Shown one piece after another: positions 33,925-64,000 of a stretch of 64,000 nt of DNA. The stretch lies in contig CM047430.1 of NCBI GenBank assembly GCA_026168455.1, positions 70,409,044-70,473,043 of the forward strand. Direction: 5' to 3'. The stretch comes from Theocolax elegans. Taxonomy: Eukaryota; Arthropoda; Insecta; Hymenoptera; Cerocephalidae. Below the pieces are notes generated by a model that saw only the letters and a program-made list of their open reading frames with translations, ran no database searches and was not told where the DNA came from. A program made the position numbers and the translations under genes. Positions within the stretch are counted from its first letter, which is position 1, and the number at the start of each line of letters is the position of its first letter.

Positions 33925-33997
33925 TTAAGTTTAGTTCAGTTATGGTAGAGCATGAGGTTTGCAAGTACAAATCAAAGGTTCAAATCTTAAATTTAAA
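33925..33997 (+). pseudogene. Decayed tRNA-like segment (tRNA-Ala relic or SINE head)
   Basis: The 73 nt can be laid out as a tRNA. T8-A9 is followed by GTTCAG...GGTAGAGC, which matches a D-arm and A-box. The loop TTTGCAA carries anticodon TGC (Ala). GGTTCAAATCT matches a T-arm and B-box. The stems are broken: the acceptor pairs at about 5 of 7 positions, the anticodon stem at about 3 of 5 and the T-stem at 3 of 5. It is therefore unlikely to be a working tRNA. Confidence 0.35.
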
Positions 33998-42605: not shown

Positions 42606-42620
42606 ACATGTATATACGTG
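42606..42620. repeat. Left copy of a 15-bp direct repeat flanking the satellite array
   Basis: acatgtatatacgtg ends where the first satellite unit starts (ttacaaaatttt at 42621). The same 15 nt recur at 57124-57138, where the last unit ends. The final g may also belong to the unit, so the repeat independent of the satellite is 10-15 bp. Confidence 0.75.
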
Positions 42621-42775
42621 TTACAAAATTTTAACGTTCGGTAATATGTATATGTATAATAATATCGGTCTCTCCGAACCAAATGCTTTACTTTTAGAAT
42701 AAAGCAGGCCTATCGTACTCTTTGTCCACTATGGTTGGTGGAATTTCCCAGAGCACGGCCTTTTAAAATAATTAA

Positions 42776-42844
42776 AGGCGTTTCGTCCTCGATCTCCAGC
42801 TTGGACTCCTCAGTAAGGAACTGGAGATCATACCTTAGACGCCT
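42776..42844 (-). ncRNA. Type III hammerhead ribozyme, first copy of the left arm
   Basis: Read on the minus strand, this 69-nt segment has helix III AGGCGU/ACGCCU, cleavage after GUC, helix I UAAGG/CCUUA, core CUGAGGA, helix II GUCC/GGAC and GAAA. It is the same as the right-arm copies. Confidence 0.88.
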
Positions 42845-43551
42845 GTCGCAAGATGATATGCGACGCCAGCAAGATGTTCTGCGGCTATATATATAGAAAA
42901 CAGACGACGATCTCTCCAACGAGTGTAGAGAGATAGTCGTCTCCCTCTGGTGGTGGGAAAAGCCACCAGCCAGAGCGCGAATTTTTAGACCGTATCGCGA
43001 GTTATTTGTTACAAAATTTTAACGTTCGGTAATATGTATATGTATAATAATATCGGTCTCTCCGAACCAAATGCTTTACTTTTAGAATAAAGCAGGCCTA
43101 TCGTACTCTTTGTCCACTATGGTTGGTGGAATTTCCCAGAGCACGGCCTTTTAAAATAATTAAAGGCGTTTCGTCCTCGATCTCCAGCTTGGACTCCTCA
43201 GTAAGGAACTGGAGATCATACCTTAGACGCCTGTCGCAAGATGATATGCGACGCCAGCAAGATGTTCTGCGGCTATATATATAGAAAACAGACGACGATC
43301 TCTCCAACGAGTGTAGAGAGATAGTCGTCTCCCTCTGGTGGTGGGAAAAGCCACCAGCCAGAGCGCGAATTTTTAGACCGTATCGCGAGTTATTTGTTAC
43401 AAAATTTTAACGTTCGGTAATATGTATATGTATAATAATATCGGTCTCTCCGAACCAAATGCTTTACTTTTAGAATAAAGCAGGCCTATCGTACTCTTTG
43501 TCCACTATGGTTGGTGGAATTTCCCAGAGCACGGCCTTTTAAAATAATTAA

Positions 43552-43620
43552 AGGCGTTTCGTCCTCGATCTCCAGCTTGGACTCCTCAGTAAGGAACTGG
43601 AGATCATACATTAGACGCCT
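43552..43620 (-). ncRNA. Hammerhead ribozyme copy with a helix I mutation
   Basis: This is the only unit where I saw a substitution inside the ribozyme. Helix I reads UAAUG instead of UAAGG (+ strand cattag in place of ccttag, at about 43610), replacing one G-C pair with a U/C mismatch. The core residues are intact. Cleavage may be weaker in this copy. Confidence 0.8.
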
Positions 43621-46600
43621 GTCGCAAGATGATATGCGACGCCAGCAAGATGTTCTGCGGCTATATATATAGAAAACAGACGACGATCTCTCCAACGAGT
43701 GTAGAGAGATAGTCGTCTCCCTCTGGTGGTGGGAAAAGCCACCAGCCAGAGCGCGAATTTTTAGACCGTATCGCGAGTTATTTGTTACAAAATTTTAACG
43801 TTCGGTAATATGTATATGTATAATAATATCGGTCTCTCCGAACCAAATGCTTTACTTTTAGAATAAAGCAGGCCTATCGTACTCTTTGTCCACTATGGTT
43901 GGTGGAATTTCCCAGAGCACGGCCTTTTAAAATAATTAAAGGCGTTTCGTCCTCGATCTCCAGCTTGGACTCCTCAGTAAGGAACTGGAGATCATACCTT
44001 AGACGCCTGTCGCAAGATGATATGCGACGCCAGCAAGATGTTCTGCGGCTATATATATAGAAAACAGACGACGATCTCTCCAACGAGTGTAGAGAGATAG
44101 TCGTCTCCCTCTGGTGGTGGGAAAAGCCACCAGCCAGAGCGCGAATTTTTAGACCGTATCGCGAGTTATTTGTTACAAAATTTTAACGTTCGGTAATATA
44201 TGTATAATAATATCGGTCTCTCCGAACCAAATGCTTTACTTTTAGAATAAAGCAGGCCTATCGTACTCTTTGTCCACTATGGTTGGTGGAATTTCCCAGA
44301 GCACGGCCTTTTAAAATAATTAAAGGCGTTTCGTCCTCGATCTCCAGCTTGGACTCCTCAGTAAGGAACTGGAGATCATACCTTAGACGCCTGTCGCAAG
44401 ATGATATGCGACGCCAGCAAGATGTTCTGCGGCTATATATATAGAAAACAGACGACGATCTCTCCAACGAGTGTAGAGAGATAGTCGTCTCCCTCTGGTG
44501 GTGGGAAAAGCCACCAGCCAGAGCGCGAATTTTTAGACCGTATCGCGAGTTATTTGTTACAAAATTTTAACGTTCGGTAATATGTATATGTATAATAATA
44601 TCGGTCTCTCCGAACCAAATGCTTTACTTTTAGAATAAAGCAGGCCTATCGTACTCTTTGTCCACTATGGTTGGTGGAATTTCCCAGAGCACGGCCTTTT
44701 AAAATAATTAAAGGCGTTTCGTCCTCGATCTCCAGCTTGGACTCCTCAGTAAGGAACTGGAGATCATACCTTAGACGCCTGTCGCAAGATGATATGCGAC
44801 GCCAGCAAGATGTTCTGCGGCTAATATATAGAAAACAGACGACGATCTCTCCAACGAGTGTAGAGAGATAGTCGTCTCCCTCTGGTGGTGGGAAAAGCCA
44901 CCAGCCAGAGCGCGAATTTTTAGACCGTATCGCGAGTTATTTGTTACAAAATTTTAACGTTCGGTAATATGTATATGTATAATAATATCGGTCTCTCCGA
45001 ACCAAATGCTTTACTTTTAGTATAAAGCAGGCCTATCGTACTCTTTGTCCACTATGGTTGGTGGAATTTCCCAGAGCACGGCCTTTTAAAATAATTAAAG
45101 GCGTTTCGTCCTCGATCTCCAGCTTGGACTCCTCAGTAAGGAACTGGAGATCATACCTTAGACGCCTGTCGCAAGATGATATGCGACGCCAGCAAGATGT
45201 TCTGCGGCTATATATATAGAAAACAGACGACGATCTCTCCAACGAGTGTAGAGAGATAGTCGTCTCCCTCTGGTGGTGGGAAAAGCCACCAGCCAGAGCG
45301 CGAATTTTTAGACCGTATCGCGAGTTATTTGTTACAAAATTTTAACGTTCGGTAATATGTATATGTATAATAATATCGGTCTCTCCGAACCAAATGCTTT
45401 ACTTTTAGTAATAAAGCAGGCCTATCGTACTCTTTGTCCACTATGGTTGGTGGAATTTCCCAGAGCACGGCCTTTTAAAATAATTAAAGGCGTTTCGTCC
45501 TCGATCTCCAGCTTGGACTCCTCAGTAAGGAACTGGAGATCATACCTTAGACGCCTGTCGCAAGATGATATGCGACGCCAGCAAGATGTTCTGCGGCTAT
45601 ATATATAGAAAACAGACGACGATCTCTCCAACGAGTGTAGAGAGATAGTCGTCTCCCTCTGGTGGTGGGAAAAGCCACCAGCCAGAGCGCGAATTTTTAG
45701 ACCGTATCGCGAGTTATTTGTTACAAAATTTTAACGTTCGGTAATATGTATATGTATAATAATATCGGTCTCTCCGAACCAAATGCTTTACTTTTAGAAT
45801 AAAGCAGGCCTATCGTACTCTTTGTCCACTATGGTTGGTGGAATTTCCCAGAGCACGGCCTTTTAAAATAATTAAAGGCGTTTCGTCCTCGATCTCCAGC
45901 TTGGACTCCTCAGTAAGGAACTGGAGATCATACCTTAGACGCCTGTCGCAAGATGATATGCGACGCCAGCAAGATGTTCTGCGGCTATATATATAGAAAA
46001 CAGACGACGATCTCTCCAACGAGTGTAGAGAGATAGTCGTCTCCCTCTGGTGGTGGGAAAAGCCACCAGCCAGAGCGCGAATTTTTAGACCGTATCGCGA
46101 GTTATTTGTTACAAAATTTTAACGTTCGGTAATATGTATATGTATAATAATATCGGTCTCTCCGAACCAAATGCTTTACTTTTAGAATAAAGCAGGCCTA
46201 TCGTACTCTTTGTCCACTATGGTTGGTGGAATTTCCCAGAGCACGGCCTTTTAAAATAATTAAAGGCGTTTCGTCCTCGATCTCCAGCTTGGACTCCTCA
46301 GTAAGGAACTGGAGATCATACCTTAGACGCCTGTCGCAAGATGATATGCGACGCCAGCAAGATGTTCTGCGGCTATATATAGAAAACAGACGACGATCTC
46401 TCCAACGAGTGTAGAGAGATAGTCGTCTCCCTCTGGTGGTGGGAAAAGCCACCAGCCAGAGCGCGAATTTTTAGACCGTATCGCGAGTTATTTGTTACAA
46501 AATTTTAACGTTCGGTAATATGTATATGTATAATAATATCGGTCTCTCCGAACCAAATGCTTTACTTTTAGAATAAAGCAGGCCTATCGTACTCTTTGTC

Positions 46601-47828
46601 CACTATGGTTGGTGGAATTTCCCAGAGCACGGCCTTTTAAAATAATTAAAGGCGTTTCGTCCTCGATCTCCAGCTTGGACTCCTCAGTAAGGAACTGGAG
46701 ATCATACCTTAGACGCCTGTCGCAAGATGATATGCGACGCCAGCAAGATGTTCTGCGGCTATATATATAGAAAACAGACGACGATCTCTCCAACGAGTGT
46801 AGAGAGATAGTCGTCTCCCTCTGGTGGTGGGAAAAGCCACCAGCCAGAGCGCGAATTTTTAGACCGTATCGCGAGTTATTTGTTACAAAATTTTAACGTT
46901 CGGTAATATGTATATGTATAATAATATCGGTCTCTCCGAACCAAATGCTTTACTTTTAGAATAAAGCAGGCCTATCGTACTCTTTGTCCACTATGGTTGG
47001 TGGAATTTCCCAGAGCACGGCCTTTTAAAATAATTAAAGGCGTTTCGTCCTCGATCTCCAGCTTGGACTCCTCAGTAAGGAACTGGAGATCATACCTTAG
47101 ACGCCTGTCGCAAGATGATATGCGACGCCAGCAAGATGTTCTGCGGCTATATATATAGAAAACAGACGACGATCTCTCCAACGAGTGTAGAGAGATAGTC
47201 GTCTCCCTCTGGTGGTGGGAAAAGCCACCAGCCAGAGCGCGAATTTTTAGACCGTATCGCGAGTTATTTGTTACAAAATTTTAACGTTCGGTAATATGTA
47301 TATGTATAATAATATCGGTCTCTCCGAACCAAATGCTTTACTTTTAGAATAAAGCAGGCCTATCGTACTCTTTGTCCACTATGGTTGGTGGAATTTCCCA
47401 GAGCACGGCCTTTTAAAATAATTAAAGGCGTTTCGTCCTCGATCTCCAGCTTGGACTCCTCAGTAAGGAACTGGAGATCATACCTTAGACGCCTGTCGCA
47501 AGATGATATGCGACGCCAGCAAGATGTTCTGCGGCTATATATATAGAAAACAGACGACGATCTCTCCAACGAGTGTAGAGAGATAGTCGTCTCCCTCTGG
47601 TGGTGGGAAAAGCCACCAGCCAGAGCGCGAATTTTTAGACCGTATCGCGAGTTATTTGTTACAAAATTTTAACGTTCGGTAATATGTATATGTATAATAA
47701 TATCGGTCTCTCCGAACCAAATGCTTTACTTTTAGAATAAAGCAGGCCTATCGTACTCTTTGTCCACTATGGTTGGTGGAATTTCCCAGAGCACGGCCTT
47801 TTAAAATAATTAAAGGCGTTTCGTCCTC

Positions 47829-47842
47829 AACAAATAACCTCC
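47829..47842. other. Inversion junction of the two satellite arms
   Basis: Fourteen nt (aacaaataacctcc) separate the broken last left unit from the first right unit, which starts at 47843 (tgtaacaaataac). The first ten nt of the filler repeat the aacaaataac found at 47846-47855. The filler therefore looks templated, as at a repair or strand-switch junction. Confidence 0.85.
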
Positions 47843-48011
47843 TGTAACAAATAACTCGCGATACGGTCTAAAAATTCGCGCTCTGGCTGGTGGCTTTTCC
47901 CACCACCAGAGGGAGACGACTATCTCTCTACACTCGTTGGAGAGATCGTCGTCTGTTTTCTATATATATAGCCGCAGAACATCTTGCTGGCGTCGCATAT
48001 CATCTTGCGAC

Positions 48012-48080
48012 AGGCGTCTAAGGTATGATCTCCAGTTCCTTACTGAGGAGTCCAAGCTGGAGATCGAGGACGAAACGCCT
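48012..48080 (+). ncRNA. Type III hammerhead ribozyme, first copy of the right arm
   Basis: The element is self-cleaving by all visible criteria. Helix III pairs 48012-48017 (AGGCGU) with 48075-48080 (ACGCCU). The cleavage triplet GUC ends at 48018. Helix I pairs 48019-48023 (UAAGG) with 48038-48042 (CCUUA). The core CUGAGGA at 48043-48049 fits the CUGANGA consensus. Helix II pairs 48050-48053 (GUCC) with 48068-48071 (GGAC). GAAA follows at 48072-48075. The open end is at helix III, which makes it type III. Loops I and II are 14 nt each and share a 9-nt complement (GAUCUCCAG at 48027-48035, CUGGAGAUC at 48057-48065). Cleavage of multimeric transcripts would give 388-nt monomers with 5'-OH and 2',3'-cyclic phosphate ends. 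Confidence 0.9.
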
Positions 48081-51000
48081 TTAATTATTTTAAAAGGCCG
48101 TGCTCTGGGAAATTCCACCAACCATAGTGGACAAAGAGTACGATAGGCCTGCTTTATTCTAAAAGTAAAGCATTTGGTTCGGAGAGACCGATATTATTAT
48201 ACATATACATATTACCGAACGTTAAAATTTTGTAACAAATAACTCGCGATACGGTCTAAAAATTCGCGCTCTGGCTGGTGGCTTTTCCCACCACCAGAGG
48301 GAGACGACTATCTCTCTACACTCGTTGGAGAGATCGTCGTCTGTTTTCTATATATATAGCCGCAGAACATCTTGCTGGCGTCGCATATCATCTTGCGACA
48401 GGCGTCTAAGGTATGATCTCCAGTTCCTTACTGAGGAGTCCAAGCTGGAGATCGAGGACGAAACGCCTTTAATTATTTTAAAAGGCCGTGCTCTGGGAAA
48501 TTCCACCAACCATAGTGGACAAAGAGTACGATAGGCCTGCTTTATTCTAAAAGTAAAGCATTTGGTTCGGAGAGACCGATATTATTATACATATACATAT
48601 TACCGAACGTTAAAATTTTGTAACAAATAACTCGCGATACGGTCTAAAAATTCGCGCTCTGGCTGGTGGCTTTTCCCACCACCAGAGGGAGACGACTATC
48701 TCTCTACACTCGTTGGAGAGATCGTCGTCTGTTTTCTATATATATAGCCGCAGAACATCTTGCTGGCGTCGCATATCATCTTGCGACAGGCGTCTAAGGT
48801 ATGATCTCCAGTTCCTTACTGAGGAGTCCAAGCTGGAGATCGAGGACGAAACGCCTTTAATTATTTTAAAAGGCCGTGCTCTGGGAAATTCCACCAACCA
48901 TAGTGGACAAAGAGTACGATAGGCCTGCTTTATTCTAAAAGTAAAGCATTTGGTTCGGAGAGACCGATATTATTATACATATACATATTACCGAACGTTA
49001 AAATTTTGTAACAAATAACTCGCGATACGGTCTAAAAATTCGCGCTCTGGCTGGTGGCTTTTCCCACCACCAGAGGGAGACGACTATCTCTCTACACTCG
49101 TTGGAGAGATCGTCGTCTGTTTTCTATATATATAGCCGCAGAACATCTTGCTGGCGTCGCATATCATCTTGCGACAGGCGTCTAAGGTATGATCTCCAGT
49201 TCCTTACTGAGGAGTCCAAGCTGGAGATCGAGGACGAAACGCCTTTAATTATTTTAAAAGGCCGTGCTCTGGGAAATTCCACCAACCATAGTGGACAAAG
49301 AGTACGATAGGCCTGCTTTATACTAAAAGTAAAGCATTTGGTTCGGAGAGACCGATATTATTATACATATACATATTACCGAACGTTAAAATTTTGTAAC
49401 AAATAACTCGCGATACGGTCTAAAAATTCGCGCTCTGGCTGGTGGCTTTTCCCACCACCAGAGGGAGACGACTATCTCTCTACACTCGTTGGAGAGATCG
49501 TCGTCTGTTTTCTATATATATAGCCGCAGAACATCTTGCTGGCGTCGCATATCATCTTGCGACAGGCGTCTAAGGTATGATCTCCAGTTCCTTACTGAGG
49601 AGTCCAAGCTGGAGATCGAGGACGAAACGCCTTTAATTATTTTAAAAGGCCGTGCTCTGGGAAATTCCACCAACCATAGTGGACAAAGAGTACGATAGGC
49701 CTGCTTTATTCTAAAAGTAAAGCATTTGGTTCGGAGAGACCGATATTATTATACATATACATATTACCGAACGTTAAAATTTTGTAACAAATAACTCGCG
49801 ATACGGTCTAAAAATTCGCGCTCTGGCTGGTGGCTTTTCCCACCACCAGAGGGAGACGACTATCTCTCTACACTCGTTGGAGAGATCGTCGTCTGTTTTC
49901 TATATATATAGCCGCAGAACATCTTGCTGGCGTCGCATATCATCTTGCGACAGGCGTCTAAGGTATGATCTCCAGTTCCTTACTGAGGAGTCCAAGCTGG
50001 AGATCGAGGACGAAACGCCTTTAATTATTTTAAAAGGCCGTGCTCTGGGAAATTCCACCAACCATAGTGGACAAAGAGTACGATAGGCCTGCTTTATTCT
50101 AAAAGTAAAGCATTTGGTTCGGAGAGACCGATATTATTATACATATACATATTACCGAACGTTAAAATTTTGTAACAAATAACTCGCGATACGGTCTAAA
50201 AATTCGCGCTCTGGCTGGTGGCTTTTCCCACCACCAGAGGGAGACGACTATCTCTCTACACTCGTTGGAGAGATCGTCGTCTGTTTTCTATATATATAGC
50301 CGCAGAACATCTTGCTGGCGTCGCATATCATCTTGCGACAGGCGTCTAAGGTATGATCTCCAGTTCCTTACTGAGGAGTCCAAGCTGGAGATCGAGGACG
50401 AAACGCCTTTAATTATTTTAAAAGGCCGTGCTCTGGGAAATTCCACCAACCATAGTGGACAAAGAGTACGATAGGCCTGCTTTATTCTAAAAGTAAAGCA
50501 TTTGGTTCGGAGAGACCGATATTATTATACATATACATATTACCGAACGTTAAAATTTTGTAACAAATAACTCGCGATACGGTCTAAAAATTCGCGCTCT
50601 GGCTGGTGGCTTTTCCCACCACCAGAGGGAGACGACTATCTCTCTACACTCGTTGGAGAGATCGTCGTCTGTTTTCTATATATATAGCCGCAGAACATCT
50701 TGCTGGCGTCGCATATCATCTTGCGACAGGCGTCTAAGGTATGATCTCCAGTTCCTTACTGAGGAGTCCAAGCTGGAGATCGAGGACGAAACGCCTTTAA
50801 TTATTTTAAAAGGCCGTGCTCTGGGAAATTCCACCAACCATAGTGGACAAAGAGTACGATAGGCCTGCTTTATTCTAAAAGTAAAGCATTTGGTTCGGAG
50901 AGACCGATATTATTATACATATACATATTACCGAACGTTAAAATTTTGTAACAAATAACTCGCGATACGGTCTAAAAATTCGCGCTCTGGCTGGTGGCTT

Positions 51001-54000
51001 TTCCCACCACCAGAGGGAGACGACTATCTCTCTACACTCGTTGGAGAGATCGTCGTCTGTTTTCTATATATATAGCCGCAGAACATCTTGCTGGCGTCGC
51101 ATATCATCTTGCGACAGGCGTCTAAGGTATGATCTCCAGTTCCTTACTGAGGAGTCCAAGCTGGAGATCGAGGACGAAACGCCTTTAATTATTTTAAAAG
51201 GCCGTGCTCTGGGAAATTCCACCAACCATAGTGGACAAAGAGTACGATAGGCCTGCTTTATTCTAAAAGTAAAGCATTTGGTTCGGAGAGACCGATATTA
51301 TTATACATATACATATTACCGAACGTTAAAATTTTGTAACAAATAACTCGCGATACGGTCTAAAAATTCGCGCTCTGGCTGGTGGCTTTTCCCACCACCA
51401 GAGGGAGACGACTATCTCTCTACACTCGTTGGAGAGATCGTCGTCTGTTTTCTATATATATAGCCGCAGAACATCTTGCTGGCGTCGCATATCATCTTGC
51501 GACAGGCGTCTAAGGTATGATCTCCAGTTCCTTACTGAGGAGTCCAAGCTGGAGATCGAGGACGAAACGCCTTTAATTATTTTAAAAGGCCGTGCTCTGG
51601 GAAATTCCACCAACCATAGTGGACAAAGAGTACGATAGGCCTGCTTTATTCTAAAAGTAAAGCATTTGGTTCGGAGAGACCGATATTATTATACATATAC
51701 ATATTACCGAACGTTAAAATTTTGTAACAAATAACTCGCGATACGGTCTAAAAATTCGCGCTCTGGCTGGTGGCTTTTCCCACCACCAGAGGGAGACGAC
51801 TATCTCTCTACACTCGTTGGAGAGATCGTCGTCTGTTTTCTATATATATAGCCGCAGAACATCTTGCTGGCGTCGCATATCATCTTGCGACAGGCGTCTA
51901 AGGTATGATCTCCAGTTCCTTACTGAGGAGTCCAAGCTGGAGATCGAGGACGAAACGCCTTTAATTATTTTAAAAGGCCGTGCTCTGGGAAATTCCACCA
52001 ACCATAGTGGACAAAGAGTACGATAGGCCTGCTTTATTCTAAAAGTAAAGCATTTGGTTCGGAGAGACCGATATTATTATACATATACATATTACCGAAC
52101 GTTAAAATTTTGTAACAAATAACTCGCGATACGGTCTAAAAATTCGCGCTCTGGCTGGTGGCTTTTCCCACCACCAGAGGGAGACGACTATCTCTCTACA
52201 CTCGTTGGAGAGATCGTCGTCTGTTTTCTATATATATAGCCGCAGAACATCTTGCTGGCGTCGCATATCATCTTGCGACAGGCGTCTAAGGTATGATCTC
52301 CAGTTCCTTACTGAGGAGTCCAAGCTGGAGATCGAGGACGAAACGCCTTTAATTATTTTAAAAGGCCGTGCTCTGGGAAATTCCACCAACCATAGTGGAC
52401 AAAGAGTACGATAGGCCTGCTTTATTCTAAAAGTAAAGCATTTGGTTCGGAGAGACCGATATTATTATACATATACATATTACCGAACGTTAAAATTTTG
52501 TAACAAATAACTCGCGATACGGTCTAAAAATTCGCGCTCTGGCTGGTGGCTTTTCCCACCACCAGAGGGAGACGACTATCTCTCTACACTCGTTGGAGAG
52601 ATCGTCGTCTGTTTTCTATATATATAGCCGCAGAACATCTTGCTGGCGTCGCATATCATCTTGCGACAGGCGTCTAAGGTATGATCTCCAGTTCCTTACT
52701 GAGGAGTCCAAGCTGGAGATCGAGGACGAAACGCCTTTAATTATTTTAAAAGGCCGTGCTCTGGGAAATTCCACCAACCATAGTGGACAAAGAGTACGAT
52801 AGGCCTGCTTTATTCTAAAAGTAAAGCATTTGGTTCGGAGAGACCGATATTATTATACATATACATATTACCGAACGTTAAAATTTTGTAACAAATAACT
52901 CGCGATACGGTCTAAAAATTCGCGCTCTGGCTGGTGGCTTTTCCCACCACCAGAGGGAGACGACTATCTCTCTACACTCGTTGGAGAGATCGTCGTCTGT
53001 TTTCTATATATATAGCCGCAGAACATCTTGCTGGCGTCGCATATCATCTTGCGACAGGCGTCTAAGGTATGATCTCCAGTTCCTTACTGAGGAGTCCAAG
53101 CTGGAGATCGAGGACGAAACGCCTTTAATTATTTTAAAAGGCCGTGCTCTGGGAAATTCCACCAACCATAGTGGACAAAGAGTACGATAGGCCTGCTTTA
53201 TTCTAAAAGTAAAGCATTTGGTTCGGAGAGACCGATATTATTATACATATACATATTACCGAACGTTAAAATTTTGTAACAAATAACTCGCGATACGGTC
53301 TAAAAATTCGCGCTCTGGCTGGTGGCTTTTCCCACCACCAGAGGGAGACGACTATCTCTCTACACTCGTTGGAGAGATCGTCGTCTGTTTTCTATATATA
53401 TAGCCGCAGAACATCTTGCTGGCGTCGCATATCATCTTGCGACAGGCGTCTAAGGTATGATCTCCAGTTCCTTACTGAGGAGTCCAAGCTGGAGATCGAG
53501 GACGAAACGCCTTTAATTATTTTAAAAGGCCGTGCTCTGGGAAATTCCACCAACCATAGTGGACAAAGAGTACGATAGGCCTGCTTTATTCTAAAAGTAA
53601 AGCATTTGGTTCGGAGAGACCGATATTATTATACATATACATATTACCGAACGTTAAAATTTTGTAACAAATAACTCGCGATACGGTCTAAAAATTCGCG
53701 CTCTGGCTGGTGGCTTTTCCCACCACCAGAGGGAGACGACTATCTCTCTACACTCGTTGGAGAGATCGTCGTCTGTTTTCTATATATATAGCCGCAGAAC
53801 ATCTTGCTGGCGTCGCATATCATCTTGCGACAGGCGTCTAAGGTATGATCTCCAGTTCCTTACTGAGGAGTCCAAGCTGGAGATCGAGGACGAAACGCCT
53901 TTAATTATTTTAAAAGGCCGTGCTCTGGGAAATTCCACCAACCATAGTGGACAAAGAGTACGATAGGCCTGCTTTATTCTAAAAGTAAAGCATTTGGTTC

Positions 54001-56934
54001 GGAGAGACCGATATTATTATACATATACATATTACCGAACGTTAAAATTTTGTAACAAATAACTCGCGATACGGTCTAAAAATTCGCGCTCTGGCTGGTG
54101 GCTTTTCCCACCACCAGAGGGAGACGACTATCTCTCTACACTCGTTGGAAGATCGTCGTCTGTTTTCTATATATATAGCCGCAGAACATCTTGCTGGCGT
54201 CGCATATCATCTTGCGACAGGCGTCTAAGGTATGATCTCCAGTTCCTTACTGAGGAGTCCAAGCTGGAGATCGAGGACGAAACGCCTTTAATTATTTTAA
54301 AAGGCCGTGCTCTGGGAAATTCCACCAACCATAGTGGACAAAGAGTACGATAGGCCTGCTTTATTCTAAAAGTAAAGCATTTGGTTCGGAGAGACCGATA
54401 TTATTATACATATACATATTACCGAACGTTAAAATTTTGTAACAAATAACTCGCGATACGGTCTAAAAATTCGCGCTCTGGCTGGTGGCTTTTCCCACCA
54501 CCAGAGGGAGACGACTATCTCTCTACACTCGTTGGAGAGATCGTCGTCTGTTTTCTATATATATAGCCGCAGAACATCTTGCTGGCGTCGCATATCATCT
54601 TGCGACAGGCGTCTAAGGTATGATCTCCAGTTCCTTACTGAGGAGTCCAAGCTGGAGATCGAGGACGAAACGCCTTTAATTATTTTAAAAGGCCGTGCTC
54701 TGGGAAATTCCACCAACCATAGTGGACAAAGAGTACGATAGGCCTGCTTTATTCTAAAAGTAAAGCATTTGGTTCGGAGAGACCGATATTATTATACATA
54801 TACATATTACCGAACGTTAAAATTTTGTAACAAATAACTCGCGATACGGTCTAAAAATTCGCGCTCTGGCTGGTGGCTTTTCCCACCACCAGAGGGAGAC
54901 GACTATCTCTCTACACTCGTTGGAGAGATCGTCGTCTGTTTTCTATATATATAGCCGCAGAACATCTTGCTGGCGTCGCATATCATCTTGCGACAGGCGT
55001 CTAAGGTATGATCTCCAGTTCCTTACTGAGGAGTCCAAGCTGGAGATCGAGGACGAAACGCCTTTAATTATTTTAAAAGGCCGTGCTCTGGGAAATTCCA
55101 CCAACCATAGTGGACAAAGAGTACGATAGGCCTGCTTTATTCTAAAAGTAAAGCATTTGGTTCGGAGAGACCGATATTATTATACATATACATATTACCG
55201 AACGTTAAAATTTTGTAACAAATAACTCGCGATACGGTCTAAAAATTCGCGCTCTGGCTGGTGGCTTTTCCCACCACCAGAGGGAGACGACTATCTCTCT
55301 ACACTCGTTGGAGAGATCGTCGTCTGTTTTCTATATATATAGCCGCAGAACATCTTGCTGGCGTCGCATATCATCTTGCGACAGGCGTCTAAGGTATGAT
55401 CTCCAGTTCCTTACTGAGGAGTCCAAGCTGGAGATCGAGGACGAAACGCCTTTAATTATTTTAAAAGGCCGTGCTCTGGGAAATTCCACCAACCATAGTG
55501 GACAAAGAGTACGATAGGCCTGCTTTATTCTAAAAGTAAAGCATTTGGTTCGGAGAGACCGATATTATTATACATATACATATTACCGAACGTTAAAATT
55601 TTGTAACAAATAACTCGCGATACGGTCTAAAAATTCGCGCTCTGGCTGGTGGCTTTTCCCACCACCAGAGGGAGACGACTATCTCTCTACACTCGTTGGA
55701 GAGATCGTCGTCTGTTTTCTATATATATAGCCGCAGAACATCTTGCTGGCGTCGCATATCATCTTGCGACAGGCGTCTAAGGTATGATCTCCAGTTCCTT
55801 ACTGAGGAGTCCAAGCTGGAGATCGAGGACGAAACGCCTTTAATTATTTTAAAAGGCCGTGCTCTGGGAAATTCCACCAACCATAGTGGACAAAGAGTAC
55901 GATAGGCCTGCTTTATTCTAAAAGTAAAGCATTTGGTTCGGAGAGACCGATATTATTATACATATACATATTACCGAACGTTAAAATTTTGTAACAAATA
56001 ACTCGCGATACGGTCTAAAAATTCGCGCTCTGGCTGGTGGCTTTTCCCACCACCAGAGGGAGACGACTATCTCTCTACACTCGTTGGAGAGATCGTCGTC
56101 TGTTTTCTATATATATAGCCGCAGAACATCTTGCTGGCGTCGCATATCATCTTGCGACAGGCGTCTAAGGTATGATCTCCAGTTCCTTACTGAGGAGTCC
56201 AAGCTGGAGATCGAGGACGAAACGCCTTTAATTATTTTAAAAGGCCGTGCTCTGGGAAATTCCACCAACCATAGTGGACAAAGAGTACGATAGGCCTGCT
56301 TTATACTAAAAGTAAAGCATTTGGTTCGGAGAGACCGATATTATTATACATATACATATTACCGAACGTTAAAATTTTGTAACAAATAACTCGCGATACG
56401 GTCTAAAAATTCGCGCTCTGGCTGGTGGCTTTTCCCACCACCAGAGGGAGACGACTATCTCTCTACACTCGTTGGAGAGATCGTCGTCTGTTTTCTATAT
56501 ATATAGCCGCAGAACATCTTGCTGGCGTCGCATATCATCTTGCGACAGGCGTCTAAGGTATGATCTCCAGTTCCTTACTGAGGAGTCCAAGCTGGAGATC
56601 GAGGACGAAACGCCTTTAATTATTTTAAAAGGCCGTGCTCTGGGAAATTCCACCAACCATAGTGGACAAAGAGTACGATAGGCCTGCTTTATTCTAAAAG
56701 TAAAGCATTTGGTTCGGAGAGACCGATATTATTATACATATACATATTACCGAACGTTAAAATTTTGTAACAAATAACTCGCGATACGGTCTAAAAATTC
56801 GCGCTCTGGCTGGTGGCTTTTCCCACCACCAGAGGGAGACGACTATCTCTCTACACTCGTTGGAGAGATCGTCGTCTGTTTTCTATATATATAGCCGCAG
56901 AACATCTTGCTGGCGTCGCATATCATCTTGCGAC

Positions 56935-57003
56935 AGGCGTCTAAGGTATGATCTCCAGTTCCTTACTGAGGAGTCCAAGCTGGAGATCGAGGACGAAACG
57001 CCT
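56935..57003 (+). ncRNA. Type III hammerhead ribozyme, last copy of the right arm
   Basis: The final unit keeps the full ribozyme unchanged, including core, GUC triplet, GAAA and all three helices. Even the edge copy of the array has not decayed. Confidence 0.88.
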
Positions 57004-57123
57004 TTAATTATTTTAAAAGGCCGTGCTCTGGGAAATTCCACCAACCATAGTGGACAAAGAGTACGATAGGCCTGCTTTATTCTAAAAGTAAAGCATTTGG
57101 TTCGGAGAGACCGATATTATTAT

Positions 57124-57138
57124 ACATGTATATACGTG
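57124..57138. repeat. Right copy of the 15-bp direct repeat flanking the satellite array
   Basis: acatgtatatacgtg here follows the last unit (its acat is shared with the unit, which otherwise continues atacatattacc). It matches 42606-42620 exactly. Joining the outer flanks through a single copy would give a plausible empty site. Confidence 0.75.
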
Positions 57139-57340
57139 GTCTACGCGTATAACCTGTATATGTAGATCGCATACGAAAGATTAGGTCTAACTTGATATAT
57201 ATATATTTCATATCCAACAGTAGAAAAGTGGTAGGTTTGTAATTTTATAGCGATGCCGCTGAATCTCGTATCGTACACTGTGTTCGTCTGGATAATTCCT
57301 TGAAATTAATAGAGATTCGCGTTTATCAAATATGTGTATA

Positions 57341-58997
57341 TGGGTGGTTCTCTGTGACATCGAAGATGAAAAAAATAAATATTGCTATAACTGTGGGAAT
57401 ATGTTTTAGAGGTATCCAGTAGTTCTCCTGAATTTTTTCAAATTTTTTCTGGGTCCTTATTTTAAGTTACAGAGAGTCAAAGTTGACATTTTAGCACTTT
57501 TTTGCATTATATGCCCATTTTCATGAATTTTTAGCTCCCAGGGGATGCATTTTTCACTAAAAACATAAGTATGACTTTTTTTGTAAAATTTTCCGAACTT
57601 TTCATTAAAAATACTTTTAAAGACATAAATGTATGCTGTCACACTCTTGTAAGCCATTTAAACCTTAAATAGTGAAAATCAGCAATTCTGCTCCGGACTC
57701 TGGTAACCTAATACTATCTAAAAGATGTCTTTTTATAGTCAGAAACTGCCTAAAAATTTCCAGAGTGGGTCTAAATCATCAAGATCACTTATGGTCAAAA
57801 TATCCGGGAAAAGTGCCCGAAATATTAATAGAAATGTATATTTGTTGCCTTATAACGATGAATCTAGTAGCATGATCATTGCAAAAAAATTTATGCACTT
57901 ACCTTGGAATGGTAGAAAAGTATCTCCACTTGTTTCAGTATCCATCTAATCCCCTGTAAGCTGCTAAAAATACAAATATTATTATAAAATTATAAAAAAT
58001 TATTTTTTAAACATTTATAATGCTGGATTTTTAGTTTTACATCCCTTACAAGAATTATAATACTAATCTGAAGGATTACTATAAAAGTATCAACATTATT
58101 ATTATTATTATTCAGCAATACATTGTTTAGATTTCACAAACTTGTCACTGTCACGTTATCATATTATTCATTATAATTATATATCCGATTTATTTATATA
58201 TCTTTTGTATTAAATACGTATATTCAGTTATTGTCATAATGATGTTTATATATTTATAGTGATCCTTCAGATTAGTATTATAATTCTTGTAAGGGATGTA
58301 AAACTAAAAATTCAGCATTATAAATGTTTAAAACTTAATTTTTTACATTTGTATAATAATATTTGTATTTTTAGCAGCTTACAGGGGATTAGATGGATAC
58401 TGAAACAAGTGAAGATACTTTTCTACCATTCCAAGGTAAGTGCATAAATTTTTTTGCAATGATCATGCTACTAGATTCATCGTTATAAGGCAACAAATAT
58501 ACATTTCTATTAATATTTCGGGCACTTTTCCCGGATATTTTGACCATAAGTGATCTTGATGATTTAGACCCACTCTGGAAATTTTTAGGCAGTTTCTGAC
58601 TATAAAAAGACATGTTTTAGACAGTATTAGGTTACCAGAGTCCGGAGCAGAATTGCTGATTTTCACTATTTAAGGTTTAAATGGCTTACAAGAGTGTGAC
58701 AGCATACATTTATGTCTTTAAAAGTATTTTTAATGAAAAGTTCGGAAAATTTTACAAAAAAAGTCATACTTATGTTTTTAGTGAAAAATGCATCCCCTGG
58801 GAGCTAAAAATTCATGAAAATGGGCATATAATGCAAAAAAGTGCTAAAATGTCAACTTTGACTCTCTGTAACTTAAAATAAGGACCCAGAAAAAATTTGA
58901 AAAAATTCAGGAGAACTACTGGATACCTCTAAAACATATTCCCACAGTTATAGCAATATTTATTTTTTTCATCTTCGATGTCACAGAGAACCACCCA
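57341..58997. mobile_element. 1.66-kb foldback (long inverted-repeat) element
   Basis: Two arms of about 745 bp (57341 to about 58086, and about 58253 to 58997) are near-perfect reverse complements around a 165-bp AT-rich spacer. The ends are TGGGTGGTTCTCTGTGAC and its complement, flanked by TA (TATA on the left), which fits a TA target duplication. The same 66-67-codon frames occur in both arms, in opposite directions, as expected of a palindrome; I recognise no transposase in them. One arm has ATG at 58392 followed by 14 codons and a GTAAGT donor near 58435, which could be the relic first exon of a parent element. It begins about 200 bp from the satellite array. I cannot assign a superfamily. 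Confidence 0.8.
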
Positions 58998-59002
58998 TAT
59001 AT

Positions 59003-61153
59003 ATATACATACCTTTTTTACAAAAAAGGACTAGTTGTCGTTGCCTGTATATATTTTATAAAAATTTATATGCGCACAAAGGAAAACGTTTAATTAAACT
59101 TATTATTATACTGTTTAACAATGGACTATACTAAGGATGCCGAAATACTAAGAAGTGCTATATTTATGTAGGTATAATATAATTTCATACAAGAACATTA
59201 ATTTTTGTTGCAACAATTAAGGAAGTTTTACTATATATATCACATGTTTCTTATTCAATATTAATACAATATAGAATTGTAATGAAAATTAACATTTTGT
59301 TACAAACATTTAGTAATAAAAATACGAAGACTGGCAAATAAGAAAACTGTAAATCATGTATATAGTAAACTTTTCGAGAAAATTCCCTAATAGTTACAAC
59401 AAAAATTAAAGATAAATGTAATAGTTTAATCAATATTTCCGATCAAGCACAAAAATTTGAACAAATCTTGTATGTCATCATACATACATTTTTTAATTTC
59501 AATGAAATATATAATATAATACTATTAAATTTTTTATAAACAAAATACTAATTTTTAATGTGATACAATTTTCTCGATACAGTATATATATGTGCGTTTA
59601 TATCCTGCATATATTAATATGCATTTTAAAAAAAAGTAAATTTATTCCTCGCTTAAAAACAACAGTTGGCCAAGTCACGATCAATCTGAAATTGAAGAAA
59701 AATACCGTTTACGAAAAATTCTCTAACTGCATATTTAATTTAAATGTATATCTATATCCGTGGATCGGCCCGTAAAATTAAACGAAAATACGTATATAAC
59801 GAAACGATAAATGGGAAACTATATCGATCCTTAAAATCGATAAGATCGATCGTGCGATTTCAAAAAAACAAAAAAAAAGGAATAGAATGTGAATCGACAA
59901 GAAACTCTTAACGCGTTAGAATTTTGAATGAGGTGTTTGTGTATCAGTGATATCCTCCATTATTCATCGTGTAAGATGGAAAAACGCGGGGGTATTAAAC
60001 AAACCGTCGACTTCCTCGAGTAATAGCCTTGGGAATAAAATTTTGTCGTACACACATCGCGTAATAAATATTATCGTCGGAATAGTAACGCGGAAGCTAC
60101 CGGAGTTATCTTTTCACCTCGAGTGAGAAAGAGCGGGAGAGATCTCGGGAGAGAGAGAGAGAGAGAGAGAGGAAAAGAGAGAAAAAGAGAGAGAGTATAA
60201 CGATCGGCTTATCGCGATCGATACTCGTATTCTTAAGCCGCCGACGCTCGTTAGAAACATCTGCCGCGTCTCTAGGGTAGTATTCTGGCGCGTGGCCACG
60301 CACCAATCAGGCACTCTCTTTCTCGCTCTCCCTCTCTCTCTCTTTGCGCGTCATTGTCCAAACGTTTCTCTCTCGCTCACTCGTTCGCTCTCCGTTCAAC
60401 GGGGCCTCGCTCGCGGGAAACCGAGCGATCGGAACGAGACAAGTATTCTTTATACCCATGTATACATATATACATATATGTATGTATATACGCACATATA
60501 TATGTATACACCTGGAATGAAAGACGAATGCTGCGATTTTGATCTTGTATTTATACTCAGGGTTTACTATTGCAGATGCGGCGATAGTCATTGCAATGAC
60601 AATAGATTGTTTACATTGTTTAGCTGAGGAGTATTAAAATTTATAAAACGTATACAATATTGCAGTTTGTTATTAATTTTCTCTCTCTCTCTCTACGATT
60701 ATTAAAATAGGTACAAAATATTCATATTCCGCAATAAAAAAATATAAGGAGATCTAAAGAAAATAAAGAAATCGATAAATTCCAAACGATGGGAAATCTA
60801 TTGAAAACAGAAAGCGTATAATGAACCCGAAACGTATAAATATATAAAAAAAAAAGCCCTCGAGGAATGGTGAAAAACTGACGTGCATTGTCGAGAGAAT
60901 CGGTGACGCGGCAAACGTCTACGAAACCGAACGAGAAAAGAAAAAGAAAAAAAAAGGCCGGTGCACCTTACTCTCGAGTGGTCCCCGCGTGCACCGAAGC
61001 TCGCGAGAGGGTGCACGCAAGTGGGAGAGTCGATGTTGCGGCATCCCTCGGTGCTTTTTACGCCGGGCCACAAGGAAACCCCCGCACAAACCTCGGGAGG
61101 GAGAGAGAGAGAGAGAGAGAGAGAGGTCGTGGCTCCTAGGTGTTGGAGCTGAT
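59003..61153. other. Intergenic DNA with (GA)n tracts and CpG-richer blocks
   Basis: 59003-59950 is AT-rich and featureless. 60100-60440 and 60880-61150 are CpG-richer, with (GA)n at 60149-60171 and 61101-61125 and (CT)n near 60329-60344. This texture resembles insect promoter or leader DNA, but no exon is supported. Confidence 0.45.
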
Positions 61154-62240
61154 TTTGAATCCGCGTAGGGTCGTGAACGCGCGCGCGCCCCCGGAACCGA
61201 GGCGCGTGCCCTCTTCAATGGAGTAGAAGTATAGCTGCCCCGAATCCCCGATCGGCGAAAGGGCTACGGTCGATGCTCTTTTCTCCTTCGGTCTATACGG
61301 AGCTTTAATTTCCTTTGTCTCGTCTATCTCTCTCTTTATTTTTGACAATACTGTTACAGCTTATGAAGTTTATGGATGCTGATCACGATTTTTGACCATC
61401 GTGGTTGACGAGATTTTTGCGTTATTGATGAGTGCTTTTTGTTGTGATGACGATTGTGATCGATGTACAATTTTTTGGAAACTTAGACAGATGAACTATG
61501 AGACTAACGGTTTTTCTGTAACCATTTAGTATAACAAATTTTAACCAATAATTTTTACACATTTTTTGCAATTTTGTTTGCCTTTATAGTTTGTAATTAT
61601 AGAAGTGGAAAGGACAATTTTATTATACTGTATTGCAGTTAGACCTCGTGAAATATCAAAAATTTTGAATGGTAATATGAACTCATCACTATGTATATAT
61701 ATATATATATACCATAGAAATTTGTTATTTCGACCAAGTCATTGTAACAAGCGTATATATGCATCACTTCGGAAAGAAAAGTCAGTATAGTCGAAAAGTA
61801 AGGAAAAAAGAAAATGCAATTCAGTAATGAAGGATACGCATTCGATCAAGCTAAATCAGCTTCGTCTTGTATAAAAGTGTCCTTTGTCCGTCTTTCCTCG
61901 AAGGTCGTATCGTAAGCATAAATTAATGGAGATCGACGGGAAGATGAATGCTCGGTTTGGAAAAATGATTTCTCCGTCGAAATGGAAGGATTTTGCTCGG
62001 CGGAAAGCCGGCGAGTGAGAAAGAGAAGAGAAGAGAAGAGGAGAGGAGAGAAGGGCGGTGTAGGAACGAAACGAAACGAGAAAGAGAAAAGAGGGCCCAG
62101 GTGAACGGCCTAACGACTGGAAGGACGATTTTTCATTTTTCGATGCCACGAGACCCCCGACAATGGACGCGTGTCACGAGCCGGCTGCAGCTGCTTGCCA
62201 CTGTTTGTCGCGCACACATGGCGCCCGAAACCTCGTGTGC

Positions 62241-62242
<2 letters not shown>
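61154..62242. repeat. Direct duplication, copy 1 (1089 bp)
   Basis: This segment recurs 1758 bp downstream at 62912-64000 with near identity. Two single-base length differences were seen: an A-run near 61660 and a T near 62058. The left boundary lies next to (GA)n tracts in both copies. A 60-odd-codon minus-strand frame (starting at 61348) is present in both copies but matches no family I know. A TA microsatellite (61692-61711) and a GA-rich block (62016-62050) lie inside. Confidence 0.95.

Positions 62243-62273
<31 letters not shown>
62241..62273 (+). repeat. CAG trinucleotide tract
   Basis: CAA, nine CAG repeats and CAA, starting where the visible duplication ends. In one frame this is a run of eleven glutamines. 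I do not call a gene, because the surrounding frame has no recognisable domain and no clear splice context. Confidence 0.7.
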
Positions 62274-62274
<1 letters not shown>

Positions 62275-62911
62275 GCGAGAGATCTCTACGCGAGATCAAA
62301 GTACGTATGTTGCCTCTGGTCTACGGGCTACGTTCGCTGCTTATATTGCATTTGCACGTGCCTCACTATACACTTCGACCCTTTTCGCGCTTCGTGAATT
62401 TTTACGACGAGTCGGTGATTAGATTACTCGGATTATTCGCCGATGATAAGACTTCAAAACGACGACTTGTACGTGACTTTTTCCGTACGGTCGCTCAATC
62501 ATTGCCACTGTTTCCTACGATAAACACTTCAATATACATATATACAGATATATATAGTATCGTAAGAGAATTATTTTAAATTGCTGGACCATAGCGCAAT
62601 GTATACGTACAAAGAAAAGGTCTTACCGAATTTCACGAAATATCGAATAAAAACAATAAATATATTTAAGGAGGAGCCGAAAAAAAGGCAACCGTAATGC
62701 GATGGCAAGCCTAACGGAACGCGTCGGTCGAAAAAATTAAATGGTATTTTTCATCAAATAGGAACAGCTGCATCCACATGGACCGTTCGAGGCGAGAGTG
62801 GAAAGCCAGCGGCTGAGAGATCGATATATTCGAAAGGATCCGTAGGACAGATAATATCTTTGCCTCTTCGGTCGAGAGAGAAACAGAGAGAGAGAGAGAG
62901 AGAGGAGAGAG
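62274..62911. other. Unique DNA between the two duplication copies
   Basis: About 640 bp with no supported gene. It is CpG-bearing at the left end and AT-rich in the middle. It ends in a (GA)n tract at 62885-62904 that touches the start of duplication copy 2. Confidence 0.5.
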
Positions 62912-64000
62912 TTTGAATCCGCGTAGGGTCGTGAACGCGCGCGCGCCCCCGGAACCGAGGCGCGTGCCCTCTTCAATGGAGTAGAAGTATAGCTGCCCCG
63001 AATCCCCGATCGGCGAAAGGGCTACGGTCGATGCTCTTTTCTCCTTCGGTCTATACGGAGCTTTAATTTCCTTTGTCTCGTCTATCTCTCTCTTTATTTT
63101 TGACAATACTGTTACAGCTTATGAAGTTTATGGATGCTGATCACGATTTTTGACCATCGTGGTTGACGAGATTTTTGCGTTATTGATGAGTGCTTTTTGT
63201 TGTGATGACGATTGTGATCGATGTACAATTTTTTGGAAACTTAGACAGATGAACTATGAGACTAACGGTTTTTCTGTAACCATTTAGTATAACAAATTTT
63301 AACCAATAATTTTTACACATTTTTTGCAATTTTGTTTGCCTTTATAGTTTGTAATTATAGAAGTGGAAAGGACAATTTTATTATACTGTATTGCAGTTAG
63401 ACCTCGTGAAATATCAAAATTTTGAATGGTAATATGAACTCATCACTATGTATATATATATATATATACCATAGAAATTTGTTATTTCGACCAAGTCATT
63501 GTAACAAGCGTATATATGCATCACTTCGGAAAGAAAAGTCAGTATAGTCGAAAAGTAAGGAAAAAAGAAAATGCAATTCAGTAATGAAGGATACGCATTC
63601 GATCAAGCTAAATCAGCTTCGTCTTGTATAAAAGTGTCCTTTGTCCGTCTTTCCTCGAAGGTCGTATCGTAAGCATAAATTAATGGAGATCGACGGGAAG
63701 ATGAATGCTCGGTTTGGAAAAATGATTTCTCCGTCGAAATGGAAGGATTTTGCTCGGCGGAAAGCCGGCGAGTGAGAAAGAGAAGAGAAGAGAAGAGGAG
63801 AGGAGAGAAGGGCGGTTGTAGGAACGAAACGAAACGAGAAAGAGAAAAGAGGGCCCAGGTGAACGGCCTAACGACTGGAAGGACGATTTTTCATTTTTCG
63901 ATGCCACGAGACCCCCGACAATGGACGCGTGTCACGAGCCGGCTGCAGCTGCTTGCCACTGTTTGTCGCGCACACATGGCGCCCGAAACCTCGTGTGCCA
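62912..64000. repeat. Direct duplication, copy 2 (cut by the window end)
   Basis: Matches 61154-62242 at a constant offset of 1758 bp after two compensating single-base indels. The window ends inside the copy, so its true length and the number of copies are unknown. Confidence 0.95.

What the first reader, a model, noticed from the sequence alone, without database searches (positions are those of the whole stretch)
42620..57127. A 388-bp satellite in which every unit carries a complete hammerhead ribozyme
Seen directly: in each unit, in strict order, AGGCGUC, UAAGG, a 14-nt loop, CCUUA, CUGAGGA, GUCC, a 14-nt loop, GGAC, GAAA, ACGCCU. All three helices pair perfectly, and the invariant hammerhead residues (CUGANGA, GAAA, NUH cleavage triplet) are present. 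Known biology: hammerhead-bearing satellites occur in newts, schistosomes and Dolichopoda cave crickets, and as retrozymes that make circular RNAs in plants and animals. Inference: transcripts self-cleave to 388-nt units and may circularise. About 37 copies at near identity make this a candidate undescribed insect ribozyme satellite.
Basis: partly seen in the sequence, partly recalled or inferred. Interest (0 to 1): 0.97.

Follow-up and report, generated by a model that had tools for sequence, protein, structure and literature searches.

The report
Wasp repeat carrying self-cutting hammerhead RNA
A parasitoid-wasp chromosome carries 37 near-identical 388-base repeats, each encoding a hammerhead RNA that should cut itself, of the kind usual in plants and viroids, and the block looks as if it was copied in at one stroke from an RNA template, probably a small circle.

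Summary
In detail: 37 hammerheads in 42619-57127, 13 on the minus strand (left array) and 24 on the plus strand (right array); 36 of 37 are letter-identical over 69 nt and 27 of 35 complete units are identical. The host is a chalcidoid wasp.

(1) Topology is type III, the plant/viroid kind; the animal retrozymes of PMC7229834 carry type I. Rfam RF00008 scores 36.5 bits, below its cut-off of 48.5. (2) The two 14-nt loops are complementary over 9 nt (28 of 100,000 shuffles): a kissing contact, or, in the predicted circle, a hairpin replacing helices I and II. (3) It looks like one 14.5-kb insertion, not a classical satellite: head-to-head arrays between 15-bp direct repeats, with 2- and 4-nt microhomologies and two matching breakpoints (unit 213 and 217-219). 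That is the anatomy of twin-primed reverse transcription of hammerhead-sense RNA, most simply a circle.

Cleavage, circles, copies elsewhere and helper enzyme are untested; all 11 genome-search requests did not complete. Verdict: new variant of the retrozyme kind.

The parts
42606..42620 (.). left copy of the 15-bp flanking direct repeat ACATGTATATACGTG, candidate target-site duplication
   Evidence: Exact repeat found only twice in the window, at the two outer edges of the block. A 15-bp repeat within 6 nt of both of two random breakpoints in nearby flanks occurred in 26 of 300,000 pairs.
42619..47828 (-). left array, 13.43 copies of the 388-bp unit, hammerhead sense on the minus strand; overlaps the left direct repeat by 2 nt (TG)
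47829..47842 (.). 14-nt filler at the head-to-head junction; its first 10 nt (AACAAATAAC) copy unit positions 216-225 in the sense of the right array
47843..57127 (+). right array, 23.93 copies, hammerhead sense on the plus strand; overlaps the right direct repeat by 4 nt (ACAT)
57124..57138 (.). right copy of the 15-bp flanking direct repeat
48012..48080 (+). representative type III hammerhead: helix III 48012-48017/48075-48080 (6 bp), predicted cleavage 48018|48019 after GUC, helix I 48019-48023/48038-48042 (5 bp), core CUGAGGA 48043-48049, helix II 48050-48053/48068-48071 (4 bp), GAA(A) from 48072
48027..48035 (+). loop I segment GATCTCCAG, complementary to the loop II segment
   Evidence: control
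48057..48065 (+). loop II segment CTGGAGATC, complementary to the loop I segment
   Evidence: control
43552..43620 (-). the one hammerhead of 37 with a substitution (G to T in helix I)
48019..48406 (+). representative complete 388-nt unit from predicted cleavage site to predicted cleavage site; 27 of 35 complete units have this sequence

Best explanation
A non-autonomous retroelement of the retrozyme kind. Transcripts of the repeat cut themselves at GUC|UAAGG by a type III hammerhead and release 388-nt RNAs; these are ligated to circles, in which the two complementary loops hold the ribozyme in an inactive hairpin. A target-primed reverse transcriptase from another element (a LINE or a Penelope-like element) used both nicked target strands as primers on hammerhead-sense RNA and copied it about 24 and 13.4 times round, giving the two head-to-head arrays. 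Shown here: hammerhead anatomy, array structure, the 15-bp flanking repeat, the microhomologies, the breakpoint coincidence, loop complementarity. Inferred: cleavage, circularisation, a circle as template, the helper enzyme, the switch.
For: 37 hammerheads, 36 identical; 0 of 20,000 shuffled units fit the descriptor; end-to-end RF00008 match. The block is bounded by an exact 15-bp direct repeat. In the head-to-head layout both outer ends begin cDNA copied from hammerhead-sense RNA, with 4-nt (ACAT) and 2-nt (TG) microhomology between target and unit. The right array starts at unit 213 and the left array at 217-219, so the first cDNA would have ended almost where the second was primed, an overlap of 5-7 nt (within 6 nt by chance about 13/388 = 3.4%, my arithmetic). 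In human L1 insertions with inversions, 132 of 287 have these two points within 20 bp, with overlaps of median 12 bp and TSDs of median 13 bp (PMC12016303, section read). The centre is not a palindrome in unit coordinates (left array ends at unit 48, right begins at 213), which argues against simple fold-back self-priming. The unit is unusually structured: circular fold -133.4 kcal/mol, 0 of 100 shuffles as low, z -8.0. Literature: short tandem repeats with hammerheads in animals give circles and are modelled as templates for primed reverse transcription into tandem cDNA, with LINEs or PLEs as candidate helpers (PMC7229834, Discussion) and, when present, TSDs above 4 bp; rotifer Penelope insertions often show inverted copies, mostly head to head, several with 8-10 bp TSDs (PMC3846280, passages).
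Against: No RNA evidence at all. The most stable nested fold of the motif and of the circle lacks helices I and II; if that hairpin always wins, the ribozyme may be weak. The Rfam score is below the curated cut-off. [quoted passage not shown] here it is 1 bp. The flanks are AT-rich and repeat-prone (26 of 300,000). No other copy lies in the window, and the rest of the genome could not be searched, so mobility is inferred from one locus. T140A occurs in 3 of 35 units, in both arrays, and an extra A at the same place in a fourth; the site is not in a simple repeat, so one clean template circle does not explain it without repeated misreading of that base, mixed templates, or later exchange between units. 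In a lizard PLE, ribozyme mutants did not affect insertion in vitro and unprocessed RNA was the main substrate (PMC11167929), which speaks for an uncut template; and that PLE starts at a site without homology to the cut DNA, unlike the 4-nt match here, so a PLE helper is not favoured by this detail.
Confidence: 0.58

Rival explanations
1. Ordinary satellite DNA amplified by unequal crossing-over or replication slippage, with an inversion; the hammerhead is a passenger that may or may not cleave.
For: Long near-identical tandem array; T140A shared by 3 of 35 units in both arrays could be spread by exchange.
Against: Does not predict a 15-bp direct repeat at the two outer edges, microhomology at both edges, or an inner and an outer breakpoint at nearly the same unit position.
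Confidence: 0.15
2. Integration of a DNA circle (extrachromosomal multimer of an older array) by a double-strand-break repair pathway.
For: Templated 14-nt filler and short microhomologies also fit end-joining.
Against: Needs two oppositely oriented multimers; no reason for the inner breakpoint of one arm to match the outer breakpoint of the other (213 against 217-219).
Confidence: 0.08
3. Twin-primed reverse transcription of one long uncut linear multimer rather than of a circle. (Shares the insertion mechanism with the best explanation, so the two are not fully exclusive.)
For: Gives the same anatomy; predicted folds leave the ribozyme blocked, so long transcripts could persist; in a lizard PLE unprocessed RNA was the main insertion substrate in vitro (PMC11167929); scattered T140A units would simply be copied from a template array that had them.
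Against: Needs a transcript of about 14.5 kb with some 37 ribozymes all uncut; animal retrozyme RNAs are reported mainly as circles (PMC7229834).
Confidence: 0.22
4. DNA copy of an infectious viroid-like or satellite RNA of the wasp, caught by a host reverse transcriptase. (Same insertion mechanism, different source of the circle.)
For: Small structured unit, with both polarities more stable than shuffles (z -8.0 and -5.8, 0 of 100 each); type III hammerheads occur in plant subviral RNAs and in HDV-like RNAs of a toad and a termite (PMC7936874).
Against: No ribozyme found on the opposite strand; a 25-nt piece of the unit has no exact match in the viral contigs; retrozymes described so far have one ribozyme in one polarity (PMC11721086, passage).
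Confidence: 0.07

Closest known systems
Metazoan non-LTR retrozymes (Cervera and de la Pena 2020, PMC7229834; passages and the Discussion read)
   Same: Short unit (150-450 bp), G+C below 50% (43.6% here), tandem copies, no LTR, TSD longer than 4 bp, hammerhead in every unit
   Different: Those carry type I hammerheads, and most of their circles are predicted to leave the ribozyme free to fold; this one is type III and its circle is predicted to block it
Plant LTR retrozymes (PMC4918200 seen in listings only; described in passages of PMC7229834 and PMC7761336)
   Same: Type III hammerhead; ribozyme predicted blocked in the circle
   Different: Plant elements are about 700 nt between ribozymes, with LTRs, PBS, PPT and 4-bp TSD; here 388 nt, multimeric, 15-bp repeat
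pDo500 satellite of Dolichopoda cave crickets (PMC2837043, Background read in full, other passages)
   Same: Insect tandem repeat with a hammerhead in the unit
   Different: About 500-bp units, about 5% of the D. schiavazzii genome, 49-nt hammerhead with a proposed 68-nt double form that adds a 'stem 0'; here a 69-nt type III motif in one insertion
Type III hammerheads of termite and toad HDV-like RNAs and of termite and dipteran genomes (PMC7936874, section 3.2 in full, other passages); elements with type III hammerheads in insects are also mentioned, without detail, in PMC7761336 (section 8)
   Same: Type III hammerheads in insects; the toad and termite ones are said to have pseudoknot contacts (PMC7761336)
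   Different: Those have a longer helix I with an internal loop and an extra hairpin; the termite genomic ones are isolated motifs; that paper found no similar motifs in the hymenopterans it searched
Pseudoknotted hammerheads (Perreault et al. 2011, PMC3088659, passages)
   Same: Base pairing that links stems I and II, likely in about 40% of their hammerheads and needed for fast cleavage in the construct tested
   Different: The passages mention contacts of four or more, five and six pairs; here up to 9 between two 14-nt loops, with a 1-bp stem difference

Membership tests
Hammerhead ribozyme, type III | CUGANGA and GAAA core, NUH cleavage triplet, three helices | tested here: met
   36 of 37 copies perfect, one with a helix I mismatch; descriptor control 0 of 20,000
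Hammerhead ribozyme, type III | Helix III open, helices I and II capped | tested here: met
   Order III-I-II-III; RF00008 model matched 1-54/54; the RF00163 (type I) match in the same 482 nt has 14.1 bits
Hammerhead ribozyme, type III | Score at or above Rfam's curated cut-off | tested here: not met
   36.5 bits against 48.5, E 7.7e-7; a curation threshold, not a mechanistic feature
Hammerhead ribozyme, type III | Self-cleavage at NUH | not testable with these tools
   Needs transcription in vitro
Metazoan non-LTR retrozyme | Tandem units of 150-450 bp, G+C below 50% | tested here: met
   388 bp, G+C 43.6%
Metazoan non-LTR retrozyme | No LTR, PBS or PPT | tested here: inconclusive
   The block consists of units, filler and flanking repeats only; PBS and PPT motifs were not searched for
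Metazoan non-LTR retrozyme | Target-site duplication longer than 4 bp (when present) | tested here: met
   15 bp; background 26 of 300,000
Metazoan non-LTR retrozyme | Type I hammerhead | tested here: not met
   Topology is type III; hence 'variant of the retrozyme kind', not a member of the published type I group
Metazoan non-LTR retrozyme | Expressed as linear and circular RNA | not testable with these tools
   No RNA data
Metazoan non-LTR retrozyme | Multiple dispersed genomic loci | tested here: inconclusive
   No other copy in the window; the genome search unanswered in 11 of 11 requests
Plant LTR retrozyme | LTRs of about 350 bp, 4-bp TSD | tested here: not met
   Two multimeric arrays of a 388-bp unit in opposite orientation and a 15-bp repeat
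Twin-primed TPRT insertion | Two cDNAs of opposite orientation, TSD, end of one cDNA near the start of the other | tested here: met
   definition and human L1 figures from PMC12016303. Human L1s also have a poly(A) tail, absent here
Viroid or viroid-like RNA | RNA-only existence; ribozymes on both polarities (Avsunviroidae) | tested here: not met
   Present as DNA; no second ribozyme found on the opposite strand

The most novel reading that the evidence does not exclude
An animal retrozyme with a plant/viroid-type ribozyme that is its own switch: the same 9-bp pairing between loops I and II acts as a kissing contact in the cutting form and, with helices I and II melted, as a hairpin that seals the circle. 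The locus would be a record of one twin-primed rolling copy of a 388-nt circle, in which even the four changes at unit position 140 could be repeated misreadings of one template base. Bolder still, the circle could have been an infectious viroid-like RNA of the wasp caught as DNA.
Probability: 0.27. Interest if true: 0.85.

Novelty: new variant of a known kind. Interest (0 to 1): 0.6.

Why it matters
How animal hammerhead repeats spread is modelled (circle, primed reverse transcription into tandem cDNA) but, in the passages seen here, inferred rather than read from one insertion. This locus shows both outer edges, both inner breakpoints and the polarity of the template, so the model makes testable claims: an empty allele with one 15-bp site, 388-nt circles of hammerhead sense, and a helper with this target signature. 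A type III ribozyme in a hymenopteran tandem element would also narrow the reported split between animal (mostly type I) and plant or viroid (type III) elements, and its 9-nt loop complementarity is a simple, mutable hypothesis for how a circle avoids cutting itself.

Tried and rejected
Rfam at gathering cut-offs and on 14.8 kb missed the motif; the short stretch found it. A 15-mer across the core matched 14 viral contigs; none of the 14 showed GGACGAA within 50 nt downstream (one, L010, is cut 7 nt after the match), so I take them as chance matches. All 238 loci were screened; 52 distinct type III-like motifs in 39 loci had at most 4 nt of loop complementarity. That control is loose: stems were extended greedily, the pattern fixed helix II as GTCC/GGAC, and these are prokaryote and viral motifs, not relatives. 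A 25-nt unit piece had no exact match in viral contigs.

Fold-back self-priming as the cause of the inversion was rejected because the centre is not mirror-symmetric in unit coordinates. Fold-back assembly artefact was rejected because the two arms run into different flanks; a wrong copy number by the assembler cannot be excluded. A first idea that most changes among units are polymerase slippage did not hold: only 3 of 9 events (ATAC at 187-190, TA at 331-332, A at 338) lie in short tandem repeats. Pfam on 10 ORFs of the window found only Spaetzle, in 2 of 10; the other ORFs were not scanned, so a reverse transcriptase elsewhere in the window is not excluded. Two papers (PubMed 20705646, PMC110794) are not held.
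Full report
What is there. Two arrays of a 388-bp unit meet head to head. The left one, 42619-47828, has 13.43 copies with the hammerhead on the minus strand; the right one, 47843-57127, has 23.93 copies with it on the plus strand; 14 nt lie between. 37 hammerheads are present, 24 plus and 13 minus, 36 of 37 identical over 69 nt. Of 35 complete cleavage-to-cleavage units, 27 are identical; the other 8 carry 9 events: T140A three times, an extra A at 140, a one-base deletion at 312, a TA deletion at 331-332, a one-base deletion at 338, an ATAC deletion at 187-190, and G4T. Three of the 9 (187-190, 331-332, 338) lie in short tandem repeats and may be slippage; the four at position 140 do not. 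These four, in both arrays and not in neighbouring units except 44774-45160 beside 45161-45549, could be repeated misreading of one template base, mixed templates, exchange between units, or sequencing error. I cannot tell which.

The ribozyme. Order along the RNA is helix III 5' strand, GUC, capped helix I (5 bp), CUGAGGA, capped helix II (4 bp), GAA, helix III 3' strand (6 bp). Helix III is the open one, so this is type III. RF00008 Hammerhead_3 matches from model position 1 to 54 with 36.5 bits, E 7.7e-7 for 151 nt, under its cut-off of 48.5. The RF00163 (type I) match listed in the same 482 nt has 14.1 bits. A structural descriptor for type III finds 37 cores, none outside the arrays, and none in 20,000 shuffled units. 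No ribozyme was found on the opposite strand of the unit.

The loops. Loop I and loop II are each 3+9+2 nt, and the two 9-nt parts, GAUCUCCAG and CUGGAGAUC, are exact complements. Independent shuffles of the two loops reach 9 nt in 28 of 100,000. Nested folding cannot show a kissing contact. Without it, the hammerhead form of the 69-mer is -12.9 kcal/mol and the best fold -28.1, in which this same pairing replaces helices I and II. In the 388-nt circle the free minimum is -133.4 and the hammerhead-enforced minimum -119.7; helices I and II have probability 0.0, the hairpin pairs 0.998 or more, and helix III 0.69-0.96. The 9-bp duplex alone is worth about -13.8, and the two whole loops as free strands -18.2, so a kissing hammerhead and the hairpin could be near in energy; this ignores loop strain and is only indicative. 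When growing prefixes are folded, helix I is there with only its own sequence made and is already gone from the minimum fold once the 5' strand of helix II is made, so the time for cutting may be short. Perreault et al. report likely pseudoknot contacts between stems I and II in about 40% of hammerheads and strong loss of activity when broken in the construct tested, but in type III mostly where the stems differ by 2 bp, against 1 bp here (PMC3088659, passages). Cervera and de la Pena note that most animal retrozyme circles leave the hammerhead free whereas plant retrozymes and viroids block it (PMC7229834, Discussion). This element would behave like the plant kind. That is prediction.

The insertion. 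ACATGTATATACGTG stands at 42606-42620 and 57124-57138 and nowhere else in the window. For random breakpoint pairs in nearby flanks, with 6 nt of play, a 15-bp repeat arose in 26 of 300,000, so the repeat is significant but the region is repeat-prone. The left array overlaps its repeat by TG and the right array by ACAT. Read as target-primed reverse transcription, the bottom strand ending in ATGT paired with ACAU of the RNA (unit 183-186) and the top strand ending in TG paired with CA (unit 218-219). Both products are complementary to hammerhead-sense RNA, so the polarity of the template follows from the head-to-head layout. The first cDNA ended at unit 213; the second began at 217-219. In 287 human L1 insertions with inversions, 132 had these two points within 20 bp, 54 of those 132 with overlap (PMC12016303, section read in full); here the overlap is 5-7 nt, about 3.4% likely by chance. 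The filler's first 10 nt repeat unit 216-225, next to the same place. Rotifer Penelope elements show inverted, mostly head-to-head copies, several with 8-10 bp TSDs; those authors favour self-priming on antisense RNA (PMC3846280, passages). Self-priming would give a mirror-symmetric centre, which is not seen here (left array ends at unit 48, right begins at 213). A lizard PLE starts internally on its RNA, at a site without homology to the cut DNA, and uses mostly unprocessed RNA in vitro whether or not its hammerhead works (PMC11167929, second half of main text). The 4-nt match here therefore leans, weakly, to a LINE-type helper, and a long uncut multimer as template stays a live rival. I still prefer a circle because it yields two long multimeric cDNAs without a 14.5-kb transcript of uncut ribozymes.

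Host and surroundings. Joined exon pieces of ATP13A1 (about 12361-17529, minus) match best Nasonia vitripennis (80% identity over 64% of the query in the best local alignment), then Eretmocerus, Phymastichus, Ceratosolen, Copidosoma and Trichogramma (120 of 2858 hits listed). That these six are chalcidoid wasps is recalled. Two Spaetzle exons lie at 27924-28672. No other copy of the unit was found in the window; the best outside match is 25 nt at E 0.10.

Novelty. In PMC7229834 animal retrozymes are type I, and metazoan genomes 'mostly' show type I. Insect type III hammerheads are reported from a termite HDV-like RNA, isolated termite motifs and dipteran genomes, and motifs of that architecture were not found in the hymenopterans searched (PMC7936874, section 3.2). 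PMC7761336 mentions insects as holders of elements with type III hammerheads, citing an earlier paper and work in preparation (neither seen), so the type alone may not be new. Searches for hammerhead ribozyme with Hymenoptera (7 papers), with Nasonia (3), with retrozyme and insect (8), with satellite DNA, Hymenoptera, wasp or ants (any 3 of 5 terms, 20 of 3858 listed) and with twin priming and related terms (any 3 of 5 terms, 20 of 34 listed) showed no title or abstract start describing such an element in a wasp; subscription journals are mostly not held. I call it a new variant of a known kind.

Limits. No RNA data, no second locus, no relative from another wasp. The copy number in the genome is unknown because the genome search did not answer in eleven tries. 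The mechanism rests on anatomy at one locus.

Noticed in passing
57331-59007: Long inverted repeat about 200 bp right of the array: arms of 772 nt, 98% complementary, 133 nt apart; looks like a fold-back or MITE-type element.
   Followed up: partly
61151-64000: Stretches repeated at a spacing of 1757-1758 bp with 100% identity (61151-61450, 61659-61958, 62059-62242 and their copies): a recent tandem duplication reaching the window's end, or an assembly duplicate.
   Followed up: no
27924-28672: Two exon-like ORFs with the two parts of a Spaetzle domain.
   Followed up: no
4521-5587: Minus-strand ORFs that look to me like sodium/solute symporter (SLC5) exons; recalled resemblance only, Pfam gave no match.
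   Followed up: partly
33925-33997: Weak tRNA match, 30.4 bits against a cut-off of 29; ARAGORN finds no tRNA in the window. Perhaps a decayed tRNA or SINE-like remnant.
   Followed up: no
49183-49570, 56166-56553, 44774-45160, 45161-45549: The same T140A change in three units spread over both arrays and an extra A at the same place in a fourth, outside any simple repeat: repeated misreading of one template base, mixed templates, exchange between units or sequencing error.
   Followed up: partly
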